DNA from: Lamellibrachia satsuma | Taxonomy: Eukaryota > Annelida > Polychaeta > Sabellida > Siboglinidae | NCBI GenBank assembly: GCA_033239005.1 | Contig: BSQZ01000051.1 | Coordinates: forward strand, 1,405,001-1,469,000 | Direction: 5' to 3' | Length of the DNA stretch: 64,000 nucleotides | In this document: positions 21,201-27,200 of the stretch, one piece after another | How the letters are laid out: the number at the start of each line of letters is the position of its first letter | How positions within the stretch are numbered: position 1 is the stretch's first letter | The notes under the pieces: model-generated | What the model was told of the DNA's origin: nothing | The model's database searches: none | The model's input: only the letters and a program-made list of their open reading frames with translations | Program-made: the position numbers and the translations under genes

Positions 21201-24200
21201 TAAATCATAGAACCACAGGGAATGAAATCCTAAATGAATATAATTAAAACATGATTGTGGTAGATTTAATCGAAACATCACGACATGTTACTTAAACTAT
21301 TCATACACCACAGATGTGAATGTCAGTGCACCTGATTTTCAGTGGGATAACTAAATTGAGGAAGATATATAAAGAGAGAAAGAATGATTGCAGTGGCAAT
21401 GAACCGTATTCGACCTATTAAGCGTACATGCCTTAATTAGTCTTTTTTTAATCAGCAGGATCCATAATCGTAATTTTACTAGTGTGGAACAACTGAAAAG
21501 TGTTGCCATCTGGTGTTAAACAGTTGGCACTACTTTTCAGTTGTTCTACACTAGTCACCAAACCAAATGATACTACTAATGTTACATATTTACCTAAGAA
21601 AAAAATGTTGATGTACGCTTATAAGAACAGAATTCCTTGACATTTTTCCATGGCCCAGTTTGTTTCAAGCGTACTGTAGGCTTACTAGGTAGAATAAGGT
21701 ATCTGACTGTTTGCAGTCAGTATAATCACAACCAGACCATGGGGCCAATGAACACAGCAAGCGTGCCGATCAGCTCTGGTGTCATGTCAGCCATGTGGCA
21801 GCTGTCTCTCGCACTCATCTTCAAGGTCGTTGTCACCATCTTCACATTCGGCATCAAGGTACCTCTCCATTTATCTCTTGCTCCTTTCCCAGTTTGGGTC
21901 TTCGGTTGCCATAGCAACATTGCTATGGCAGATTGCATGGAAGAGGGGCATATGAATTTTTTTTGTTTTCTAATTTCAGCCAATCTAATTTTAAGGGTGC
22001 AGGTTTTATCATAAATATGTTATATCATATAAACTATTTTTATTCTAACATCTTGACCACTCTAATTTGTTTTTATTAACAATATTTGTTTAATATAATT
22101 GGATCATTATCTCTTTATAAATACCGATCTATACATTGCCATTCAGTTCATTTGCTGTTGACAGTTCTGGTAGTTGTAAACAAAGTTTATTGGGGTCAGG
22201 TATTTGCTGGATCACGTGATGGGCATATCATTGACGCGTGTAATTACTTGGAATTGTATGTGACCTATTGCACTCGGACATGTACATGACCTAAAGTACT
22301 TGGAATTGTACATGACCTAATGTACTTGGAATTGTGCATAACCTAATGTTCTTGGACTTGTAGATGACCTAATGTACATGGACTTGTGCATGACCTAATG
22401 TACATGGATTTGTATGTGACCTAATGTACATGGAATTGTATGTGACCTAATGTACATGGACTTATACTTGACGTAATGTACTTGGAATTGTACATGACCT
22501 AATGTACTTGGAATTTTACCTGAGCTAATGTACTTGGACTTGTGCATGACCTAATGTGCTTGGATTTGTACATGACCTAATGTACTTGGAATTGTACTTA
22601 ATCTAATTAACTTGGACTTGTATTTAACCTAATGTACTTGGACTGTGCTTAACCTAATGTACATGGAATTGTACTTGATCAACGTTGAAGTACTTGTATT
22701 TGTATTTGATAAGTTTGTATGTACTTATACATAAGCAACTGTGGGCGGTTTATTCAAGAGAGCATATTATGGCCCTGTTGTAGGTACCCGCTGGACTGTT
22801 CATACCAAGCATGGCTGTAGGGGCTATTGCAGGCCGTATCCTGGGGGTCGGCATGGAGCAATTGGCCTTGTAAGTGAATGAACGCTTGACCTGTGAAGCT
22901 CTACAGAGAGACCCAGAGAACCTGCCCCCAAACTGTTATGTTTGACCTCTTTTAATTGTCCAGTGCTTTCTGGTCAGAGAGACCCAGAAAGGCTCCCCTA
23001 ATGTATTCTGTTTTACCCTTGAAATAGTGCAGTGCTTTTTGGTCACATAGAGCCAGAGAACCTCCCCCTAATCTATCTACCTGTGAAACTCCAGTGGTTT
23101 TTGGTCATGTCGACCTAGATACCCCCGTAATCTTTTACATTTGACCTGTGAAGCTCTCCAATGCTTTCTGATCACATAGATCAAGAGAATGTCCACAATG
23201 TATTCTGTGTGACCTATGAAGTTCTCAGTGAAGCTGTCATGTTCAGAGAAACGCAGATAGAGTCTCCAATCGATTCTTTTTTCTACTATGAAATTGTCCA
23301 GTACGTTTTGGTCAGAGCGACGTAGGGAACCTCTCCAATCTGTATTATTTGACCTGTGAAAGTGTCCGGTGTGTTCTGGTGCAGAAAGAACTTAATACTT
23401 AATAATATGTTTCTGTTCCAAAGAGAACCGAGCACAGAGAATGTGCCCTACTATGTTTAAAATTGCCCATCTACTGTCTGTCTGTGCAGCACCAACCAGA
23501 ACCACGCAATCTTCTAGGAGATGTACACCAGTATTAACCCTTTGTCTGTTTGCGCAGCACCTACCAGAACCATGCAATCTTCTAGATGTACACCAGTATT
23601 AACCCTTTGTCTGTCTGCGCAACACCTACCAGAATCACACAAACTTCTAGATGTACACCAGTATTAACCCTTTGTCTGTCTGCGCAGCACCTACCAGAAC
23701 CATGCAATCTTCTAGATGTACACCAGTATTAACCCTTTGTCTGTCTGTGCAGCACCTACCAGAACCACACAATCTTCTAGGAGATGAACACCAGTATTAA
23801 CCCTTTGTCTGTCTGTGCAGCACCAACCAGAACCACGCAATCTTCTAGGAGATGTACACCAGTATTAACCCTTTGTCTGTCTGTGCAGCACCTACCAGAA
23901 CCACACAATCTTCTAGGAGATGTACACTAGTATTAACCCTTTGTCTGTCTGCGCAGCACCTACCAGATCCACACAATCTTCTAGGAGATGTACACCAGTG
24001 TTAACCCTTTGTCTGTCTGTGCAGCACCTACCAGAACCACACAATCTTCTAGGAGATGTACACCAGTATTAACCCTTTGTCTGTCTGTGCAGCACCTACC
24101 AGAATCATGCAATCTTCTAGATGTACACAAGTATTAACCCTTTGTCTGTCTGTGCAGCACCTACCAGAACCATGCAATCTTCTAGATGTACACCAGTATT

Positions 24201-27200
24201 AACCCTTTGTCTGTCTGTGCAGCACCTACCAGAGCCACACGATCTTCTAGGAGATGTACACCAGTATTAACCCTTTGTCTGTCTGTGCAGCACCTACCAG
24301 AATCATGCAATCTTCTAGATGTACACCAGTGTTAACCCTTTGTCTGTCTGTGCAGCACCTACCAGAACCACACGATCTTCTAGGAGATGTACACCAGTAT
24401 TAACCCTTTGTCTGTCTGTGCAGCACCTACCAGAATCATGCAATCTTCTAGATGTACACCAGTGTTAACCCTTTGTCTGTCTGTGCAGCACCTACCAGAA
24501 CCACACAATCTTCTAGGAGATGTACACCAGTATTAACCCTTTGTCTGTCTGTGCAGCACCTACCAGAACCATGCAATCTTCTAGATGTACACAAGTATTA
24601 ACCCTTTGTCTGTCTGTGCAGCACCTACCAGAGCCACACGATCTTCAAGGAGATGTGTAACAGTGGCCACACATGTGTCACCCCTGGTCTCTACGCCATG
24701 GTCGGTGCAGCAGCAGCCCTAGGGGGCGTCACCAAGATGACAGGTAAATGTCATTTTGGAAGATATACGGCCATATCTCATATCTCCATGGATTTGTTTC
24801 AAGTTTACATTGCTGTTTCAATTTGTTGTTGTTTTGTAATAATTCTTTAATTAATGTAGCATGCATAAAAATGTTACAGTTATGTCAAACAAAGAAGTGT
24901 TTACTATTATGCCATACCGGTAATCAGAAATGTTTCAGTATTATAACTTTACTACATCAAACATTGTTTTGCTGGTTAAGAAGATTAACAAACAACCACA
25001 CAATATAATGCAGGCCAGCATTGTGTCGTGTCTGACATAGTGACGCGTCATATTTCAGTGTAGCTGGTGGTGATCATGTTCAAGTTGACTGGAGGCCTAC
25101 ATTGCATTTTGTCTGACAAAGTGACATGTCATGTTCCAGTGTCACTGGTGGTGATCATGTTTGAGTTGACTGGAGGCCTACATTACATTTTGTCTGACAT
25201 AGTGACGTGTCATGTTCCAGTGTCACTGGTGGTGATCATGTTCGAGTTGACTGGAGGCCTACATTGCATTTTGTCTGACATAGTGACGTGTCATGTTCCA
25301 GTGTCACTGGTGGTGATCATGTTCGAGTTGACTGGAGGCCTACATTACATTTTGTCTGACATAGAGACGTGTCACATTCCAGTGTCACTGGTGGTGATCA
25401 TGTTGAGTGGAGGCCTACATTATATTGTGTCTGACATAGTGACGTGTTACGTTCCAGTGTCACTGGTGGTGATCATGTTCAATTGGAATGGAGGCCTACA
25501 TTACATTTTGTCTGACATAGTGACGCGTTGTGTTTCAGTGTCGCTGGTGGTGATCATGTTTGAACTGACAGGAGGCCTTCAGTACATAGTGCCACTGATG
25601 GCGGCTGTGATGACAAGTAAATGGGTGGCTGATGCCTTTGGCAAAGAGGGCATGTATCCTTTCTCACGTGGCTCGGATAATATTCCATAACATCAGTCAG
25701 TACAAACTATCTAAATTAGCAATATTATACTCCATGTTTTATATCTGTGATATATTTACTGTTGGAAATTGTATAAAAAGGAATTTGAGAGAGATCAATA
25801 AAACATCCCATGAAACCGTATATTTCAACTTTAAATTTGATTTATTTGTGTCTATTATTACCGGACAGCGATGTCGTAAAACTGACATATTTTATTTCAG
25901 TGCCCAATTGTGTATTTTGTAAAATATCATGATAGTAAGTTGTTTTGTATTGATCTTATTTTTAGACAACTGGGTTGTTATGAATACCAATAAAATCAGT
26001 GTTGTGAGCTAAACAGAAAATATTACTATCTATGGCTTCAGGTGTTTTGTTAAAGATGGAACTCTTTCATGTGGCTGTGTGGATTCCTTTATTGAACATT
26101 GAACAGATATGATGCACATATCCATCTTAATGGATATCCATTCCTTGATAGCAAGGAGGAGTTTATTCATACAACTATTGCAGCCGATGTCCTGAGACCT
26201 AGGTGAGGACTACAACTCTTCTTTTACACTACTGACTTAAGGTGGTTGGGGCGGCTAGCTTGTCAGTTGATTTTTTTCTTTTCTTCAAACATGCTAGGAT
26301 ATACTGAACTAAACGTCTACACCACAAAAAACCACCCGGCACTAACGTCATATTTCGCCAATCCATCCTTTAAAAATGCAGTCCTTTTGGAAATCCCCTT
26401 GGATTCGTAGAAAAGTGACAATGTTTCCATAGTAACGACCATGGCACTACGATGTTCGAACCAGCTAGATTCATTCGCAGTGAAAGCAGAACACATCGTC
26501 TAGTTACTGTAATGCTAGTACACATCAGTATTATATCTGCCTAACTAAATCATTTACTTAAACCAGCAAATATCAGCATTCAGTGAGCGTTAACGTTGTT
26601 TATCGTGCTCTTGACACGAACTGAAATGCTGACGAGTATGTGACCTGGTGACCCCGCGGGATAACGGGCCAATCAAAATGACCGTCCACACACCCTGCCA
26701 CGTGTTTGTTAGATGGCTGGCGTAACATGATACCATAGACGACAACACATTACAAGTACAGATTCAAGGACTATTGTGGCAACAAATTAAGGGGACGTTA
26801 ATATTACAAATGGCCATTATGTTTTGTCAACAATACATAAAATGCCAGTGAAAAACCATATATTTCAACACAAAAACAAGCATTTGTTGAGATTGTGTCA
26901 TTCAAGTTTTGCTTAATTCATTCACGGTAGTGTAGCAGACATAATTGGTTTATGTTTACCAAAATATGCCATAAAGTTATCAGTTACACTGTCATGCTTA
27001 CATGTATGTTATTTATTTCTTTGGGGATTGTCTCAAAACGATTAAACTTTGTTTTTAGTGGCTAATTTTTCATATTTACAAAAATGTTTTAAAAACCTTG
27101 TAACATAACCAAATAAATGAAAAACTCCAATTATTTTAATCCAGTTTATTATATAGTATTTCACCTACAATCTTTGAAGAAATGGTTAACTTATCTTTAA

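What the first reader, a model, noticed from the sequence alone, without database searches (positions are those of the whole stretch)
23464..24646. Seventeen decoy 3' splice sites, all with an in-frame stop, upstream of CLC exon 14
The repeat unit is the intron-exon junction itself: about 25 nt of intron end (branch-point-like attaac, pyrimidine tract, cag) plus about 43 nt of exon 14. Sixteen of 17 copies keep the AG. Joining exon 13 (phase 2) to any of them reads FTYQNHxIF and then TAG, while the true exon has AAG at that codon. Unit length varies between 68 and 65 bp, the difference being one codon next to the stop. The array could act as a poison-exon style brake on expression, or be tolerated because the last site wins. 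Either way the spliceosome must pick the right one of 18 near-identical sites.
Basis: partly seen in the sequence, partly recalled or inferred. Interest (0 to 1): 0.92.

Follow-up and report, generated by a model that had tools for sequence, protein, structure and literature searches.

The report
Tandem copies of a splice junction
In an animal chloride-transporter gene the end of one intron and the start of the next exon have been copied 17 times in a row, and similar arrays in four nearby genes suggest these are unstable repeats that splicing has to ignore rather than a designed switch.

Summary
The gene is a CLC-3/4/5-type exchanger. The array is a "mirage", a minisatellite spanning a splice junction, as described in amphioxus. 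It is not alone: this gene has another acceptor array, mostly open in frame, and a degenerate donor array; 284 kb of the contig hold six more in four genes. A designed brake is not supported: the TAG is one founder difference and redundant. Most likely the arrays are tolerated because exon definition picks the site beside the exon body; only 8 of 76 AG-bearing decoys would leave an exon of 250 nt or less. Whether arrays favour junctions is open: first counts showed no significant excess, a later one about twofold. No RNA evidence was available; the species is unidentified.

The parts
23475..24656 (+). Junction-spanning minisatellite: 17 copies of 25 nt intron end + 40 or 43 nt exon start, then the true junction
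   Evidence: TRF; unit table
23490..24621 (+). 17 decoy acceptors with their exon fragments; 16 of 17 keep AG, 17 of 17 carry in-frame TAG, 12 of 17 identical to the true acceptor over -20..+3
24622..24743 (+). True exon (12th recognised coding exon), acceptor gtgcag|CACC, donor ACAG|gtaaat
22784..22869 (+). Upstream coding exon, ends in TT (phase 2)|gtaagt
22904..23076 (+). Degenerate ~69-bp repeat in the first part of the same intron
   Evidence: TRF; sequence
25029..25587 (+). Second junction array on the next acceptor: 6 decoys of 81 or 75 bp, all with AG; 5 of 6 open in frame through the true exon, copy 1 has TAG at codon 2
25539..25653 (+). True exon belonging to the second array ([18 protein letters not shown]...)
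12891..13007 (+). Degenerate donor-side junction array, ~21-bp unit (CACAG|GTGTG...), overlapping the last 10 nt of the exon 12755-12900
9566..35220 (+). CLC-3/4/5-type Cl-/H+ exchanger gene, 19 coding exons recognised; 18 merged tandem arrays (period 10 or more) cover 4540 bp of it

Best explanation
It is a mirage-type minisatellite. A short stretch running from the end of an intron into the start of an exon was tandemly duplicated, then expanded and homogenised like other minisatellites in this very repeat-rich genome. The founder copy carried the TAG, so all copies do. The array is transcribed as intron. The spliceosome uses the last acceptor because exon definition pairs the acceptor and donor closest together across the exon: the true exon is 122 nt, whereas decoys would give exons of 187 to 1254 nt. 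A slip yields a stop-containing message that nonsense-mediated decay can remove. Shown here: the anatomy, the identity of the sites, the frame consequences, sister arrays in other genes. Inferred: that the array is transcribed and spliced out, use of the last site, exon definition as the reason, NMD clean-up.
For: Exact junction units. 12 of 17 decoys have the same 23 nt around the acceptor as the true site, so local acceptor sequence cannot choose. The true site is the only one of 18 that leaves the exon open. Six acceptor arrays in four genes (CLC twice, PPAT twice, guanylate cyclase, ST13) hold 76 AG-bearing decoys among 80 counted, and only 8 of these 76 would leave an exon of 250 nt or less. 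In the guanylate cyclase array units are wholly exon start plus intron end, overlapping by 4 nt (GTTG), and in the best PPAT_a units all but 1 nt is so assigned, as a direct tandem duplication predicts. Arrays make up 13.1% of the 284-kb stretch and 5228 and 11199 of 30000 bases at two other places. Intron-part and exon-part variability are alike (4 of 25 and 9 of 43 columns). Published: Adh3 and globin mirages of amphioxus do not appear to disturb regular splicing (PMC3087553, section 16 read; PMC3902484, passages).
Against: No RNA data, so the choice of acceptor is unproven. Exon definition is not shown for this animal. From recall, not from a call: in cis-competition constructs with duplicated acceptors the acceptor nearer the upstream donor can win, which would predict use of a decoy. 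ST13 has 3 decoys that would leave short exons, so size alone does not exclude all of them. 18 nt of the focal unit, including the ATTAAC element, fit neither flank, nor do 11 nt in PPAT_b and 20 or more in the second CLC array, so a simple duplication does not explain every base.
Confidence: 0.7

Rival explanations
1. The array is a regulated or copy-number-dependent brake: a fraction of transcripts uses decoys, meets TAG and is degraded, so repeat number tunes CLC output.
For: Every AG-bearing decoy gives an early stop (16 of 16) and most decoys match the true acceptor. Published mirages vary in length between haplotypes, and somatic instability is reported for Adh3 (PMC3087553).
Against: The stop is one shared change and is redundant. 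The adjacent array of the same gene gives mostly in-frame products. Other genes carry the same kind of array. No good donor in the unit examined.
Confidence: 0.1
2. Exon ends are preferred birthplaces or refuges of minisatellites in this genome, for example through transcription- or splicing-linked DNA breaks. This concerns the origin and is compatible with the best explanation.
For: When arrays touching an exon-like segment count too, 9, 11 and 14 are seen against 2.9, 5.0 and 8.0 expected (P 0.007, 0.008, 0.04). Permuted codon scores give no excess (mean 2.84 against 2.85, and 4.92 against 4.87), and 8 and 10 with the real score are reached by 0 and 1 of 25 permutations.
Against: That criterion was chosen after the first counts, which were not significant: 3 against 1.25-1.47 in the CLC gene (P 0.13-0.18) and 5-7 against 2.1-4.3 in 284 kb (P 0.06-0.17). 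Unconditioned random placement in the CLC gene expects 5.9. Only 7 or 8 of the arrays counted are verified junction arrays, and all come from one stretch.
Confidence: 0.3
3. Assembly artefact.
For: Long tandem arrays are prone to copy-number error; amphioxus PGBD5 arrays differed between two assemblies (PMC3902484 passages).
Against: The array lies inside a 4.7-Mb contig, units carry distinct variants, the matches scored in the own genome all lie within this one array, and independent arrays of the same build occur in other genes.
Confidence: 0.03

Closest known systems
Mirage minisatellites of amphioxus (Adh3, globins BflGb6 and BflGb9, troponin C, PGBD5); PMC3087553, PMC3902484
   Same: Minisatellite-like tandem copies of an exon-intron boundary, on acceptor or donor side, many copies with AG or GT; published units of 10 to 160 bp bracket these
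   Different: Host species not identified here; more copies (17 here, 32 counted decoys in one PPAT array) than the 6 and 3 units reported for the two BflGb6 haplotypes; nine such arrays within one 284-kb stretch; two on successive exons of one gene
Poison exons / alternative splicing coupled to NMD (recalled class)
   Same: Use of a decoy would put an early stop in the mRNA
   Different: No good donor in the unit examined, so no cassette exon; no sign of selection for the stop
Intron gain hidden by NMD in Drosophila (PMC2809761, abstract and outline seen)
   Same: Idea that stops and NMD hide splicing errors from selection
   Different: That concerns new introns with weak sites; here an existing junction is copied and most decoys match the original site

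Membership tests
Mirage minisatellite | Tandem repeat whose unit spans an exon-intron boundary of a real exon | tested here: met
Mirage minisatellite | Repeats retain AG or GT splice signals | tested here: met
   16 of 17 decoys keep AG
Mirage minisatellite | Length instability between haplotypes or in the soma | not testable with these tools
   one assembly only
Mirage minisatellite | Regular splicing not disturbed (RT-PCR) | not testable with these tools
   no RNA data
Mirage minisatellite | Host is a cephalochordate, as in the papers seen | tested here: inconclusive
   species of G000 (735 Mb, 279 contigs) not identified; COX1 search without match, protein search off, search for GFP-like proteins did not complete
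Poison exon | Cassette exon with its own acceptor and donor | tested here: not met
   only poor GT sites in the unit examined
Poison exon | NMD-sensitive isoform | not testable with these tools
   no RNA data
CLC-3/4/5 Cl-/H+ exchanger | Best sequence match to CLC-3 over most of its length | tested here: met
   E 2.9e-254 to H(+)/Cl(-) exchange transporter 3, chain residues 69-434 and 494-661; C-terminal part. Compared with PDB chains only, so CLC-3, -4 and -5 are not told apart

The most novel reading that the evidence does not exclude
Mirage arrays are not a curiosity of a few genes but a pervasive feature of this genome, born or kept preferentially at exon ends, so that housekeeping junctions are preceded or followed by up to dozens of near-identical decoy splice sites. 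The splicing machinery of this animal therefore tells identical sites apart by position relative to the exon body, and each array is a natural test of exon definition in which sequence is held constant and distance varies; occasional leakage would make copy number a heritable modifier of dosage (stop-bearing arrays) or of protein length (in-frame arrays such as the 27-residue units at 25059-25538).
Probability: 0.35. Interest if true: 0.8.

Novelty: new member of a known kind. Interest (0 to 1): 0.57.

Why it matters
How a splice site is chosen among equally strong copies is usually studied with engineered genes (general knowledge). Here nature has built the experiment repeatedly: 12 decoys with the same 23 nt as the real site in a conserved transporter gene, and further arrays in PPAT, guanylate cyclase, ST13 and an Intu-like gene. 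RNA from this animal would show directly whether distance across the exon decides. The arrays are also a plausible route to new introns, as proposed for amphioxus globins (PMC3087553), and to in-frame protein repeats. In seven library searches (capped listings, titles and starts of abstracts, three papers opened) I saw no genome-wide count of such arrays and none in a CLC gene; the original Adh3 paper is not held and was not seen.

Tried and rejected
Selection for stops: rejected, since the TAG is one of four differences shared by all 17 units against the true exon (unit 12 differs only there), and all 17 decoys reach another stop by codon 61 without it.

Junction targeting: left open. The criterion is post hoc. 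The odds of that rival were raised from 0.12 to 0.3 for this reason.

Selection on decoy acceptors: no difference between the intron part (4 of 25 variable columns) and the exon part (9 of 43).

Species: a COX1 family search of the own genome gave no match; the GFP-family search, meant as a test for lancelets, did not complete.

Dropped before the counts: the TIR-like array (51 bp x 19; no AG junction seen in the unit, no Pfam match), arrays near 59541 and 96078 and at the PPAT C-terminal exon (no demonstrated junction), and the edge cases, judged by eye to be repeat reading frames. The 60 kb gave no junction array that I recognised, but few exon-like segments.

Limits of the counts: decoys were found by motif. 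In PPAT_a the motif includes the AG, so 32 of 32 with AG holds by construction; in ST13 it includes TTACA; one double spacing each in PPAT_a and PPAT_b suggests a missed unit. The exon finder is a codon-usage score trained on this same gene; 6 of the 17 CLC exons checked gave no segment.
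Full report
What was claimed and what is there. One search confirms it copy by copy: 18 junctions from 23490 to 24622, nine decoy units of 68 bp and eight of 65 bp, AG in 16 of 17 decoys, TAG in the exon frame in 17 of 17, and AAG in the true exon. TRF finds the array at 23475-24656 with score 1895. Over the 23 nt from -20 to +3, 12 of 17 decoys equal the true acceptor, so a score based on that local sequence rates them the same.

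The gene. Translated exons match the PDB's H(+)/Cl(-) exchange transporter 3 (CLC-3) over most of the protein (E 2.9e-254; C-terminal part). I recognise 19 coding exons between 9566 and 35220; the starts of the 10th and 16th are unresolved, other ends were set by eye, and an exon between the 9th and 10th may be missing. Upstream exon 22784-22869 ends in phase 2, and the joined reading is [23 protein letters not shown], in line with CLC-3, whose K in IFKE is the codon that reads TAG in the decoys.

More arrays of the same build. The very next exon has its own acceptor array: six decoys at 25059-25458 in units of 81 or 75 bp, all with AG. Because those lengths are multiples of three, five of six decoys read open through to the end of the true exon, adding about 27 residues per unit; copy 1 has TAG at its second codon. 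Exon 12755-12900 has a degenerate donor-side array. In 284 kb of contig C51 around the window, a codon-usage exon finder and reading of the sequence gave six more: PPAT, two acceptor arrays (32 and 10 counted decoys, units about 46 and 56 bp); soluble guanylate cyclase beta-1, acceptor (9 decoys, 46 bp); ST13, one donor (4 sites with the true one) and one acceptor (6 counted decoys), on exons that join directly; and an Intu-like gene, donor (8 sites with the true one). Exon identities: amidophosphoribosyltransferase (PPAT), guanylate cyclase, Hsc70-interacting protein (ST13), Intu-like only weakly (E 0.0083, below its curated cut-off). This makes nine junction arrays: three in the CLC gene and six in four other genes.

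Decoys taken together. In the six acceptor arrays 76 of 80 counted decoys carry AG (16/17, 6/6, 32/32, 10/10, 8/9, 4/6), and 71 of these 76 would meet a stop before the end of the true exon; the five exceptions all belong to the 81-bp array. The PPAT_a count was made on a motif that contains the AG, so its 32 of 32 says nothing on loss of AG; the ST13 motif contains TTACA; PPAT_a and PPAT_b each hold one double spacing, so a unit was probably missed there. The presence of stops is what arrays whose units shift the reading frame would give by themselves.

Is there selection for the stop or the sites? The TAG is one of four differences that separate all 17 units from the true exon; unit 12 differs from the true exon only at these four places. 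If the TAG were ignored, every decoy would meet another stop by codon 61. Variable columns are about equally common in the intron part (4 of 25) and the exon part (9 of 43). So the 17 stops are one event, copied.

Are arrays aimed at junctions? The CLC gene holds 18 arrays covering 4540 of 25655 bp. Random placement would put 5.9 junctions inside arrays. If arrays may only nibble 50 or 60 nt of an exon, 1.25 or 1.47 are expected and three are observed (P 0.13, 0.18; at a limit of 35 nt two are observed against 0.87). In the 284 kb a first count, requiring 5 nt of overlap, gave 5-7 against 2.1-4.3 (P 0.06-0.17), but it missed four of the nine verified arrays and included two unverified ones at its loosest setting. 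Counting arrays that touch an exon-like segment gave 9, 11 and 14 against 2.9, 5.0 and 8.0 (P 0.007, 0.008, 0.04; 7, 7 and 8 of these verified). With permuted codon scores there is no excess (mean 2.84 against 2.85 and 4.92 against 4.87 over 25 permutations), while the real score gives 8 against 3.1 and 10 against 5.0, values reached by 0 and 1 of 25 permutations. So a roughly twofold excess at exon ends is possible, on a criterion chosen after the fact and from one stretch of one contig. Arrays are in any case very common: 154 of them, 13.1% of the 284 kb, and 5228 and 11199 of 30000 bases on two other contigs, where I recognised no junction array and few exon-like segments were present.

Origin. 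A tandem duplication across a junction should give units made of exon start plus intron end. In the guanylate cyclase array units decompose so with a 4-nt overlap (GTTG); in the best PPAT_a units all but 1 nt does. In PPAT_b 11 nt, in the focal array 18 nt (including the branch-point-like ATTAAC) and in the second CLC array 20 nt or more fit neither flank. I take the origin to be direct duplication, with later change or filler in older arrays.

How it most likely works. True sites are, by construction of these arrays, the ones touching the exon body: the last acceptor or the first donor. True exons in the six acceptor arrays are 103-222 nt; only 8 of 76 AG-bearing decoys would leave an exon of 250 nt or less, three of them in ST13. 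Recognition of acceptor and donor across a short exon (exon definition, established knowledge) would therefore discard most decoys, and NMD would remove most slips. [quoted passage not shown] The Drosophila paper on NMD and intron gain (abstract and outline) gives a parallel for errors hidden by NMD. The use of 24622 itself is inferred: it is the only one of the 18 sites that leaves the exon open.

What it is in known terms. It meets the structural definition of a mirage minisatellite. It fails the cassette requirement for a poison exon.

Verdict. What raises interest is the company it keeps: nine junction arrays in five genes within 284 kb, two on successive exons and two on exons that join directly, offering a natural test of how position alone selects a splice site, with a hint that exon ends attract such arrays.

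Noticed in passing
window 25029-25587: Acceptor array of the next CLC exon with 27-codon units open in frame: decoy use would add [31 protein letters not shown] repeats to the transporter without a stop (5 of 6 decoys).
   Followed up: yes
L024:7509-9056 and L025:9931-10000 with L026:1-591: PPAT gene: two acceptor-side junction arrays, about 46 bp x 34 and 56 bp x 12.
   Followed up: partly
L026:6299-6762, minus strand: Soluble guanylate cyclase array: the junction reads CAG|GTAGAG, so each AG-bearing decoy has AG directly followed by GT and resembles a recursive-splicing (ratchet) site (recalled class).
   Followed up: no
L020:5378-5587 and 7917-8168, minus strand: ST13: donor array and acceptor array on exons that join directly, so both ends of one intron appear to be repeated.
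   Followed up: partly
L007:2813-3183: Intu-like gene: donor-side junction array, 41 bp x 9, eight sites CAGYAG|GTTAGT.
   Followed up: partly
L010:8799-9769, minus strand: 51-bp x 19 array, open in frame in several copies, leading into a TIR-like reading frame (resemblance by eye; no Pfam match); may be a coding repeat.
   Followed up: no
L031-L033 (contig C10): 32 tandem arrays cover 11199 of 30000 bases, a very high minisatellite load.
   Followed up: no
window 22880-23440: Much of the rest of the same intron looks by eye like a degenerate ~70-bp repeat (TRF reports 22904-23076), so the intron may be almost wholly tandem repeat.
   Followed up: no
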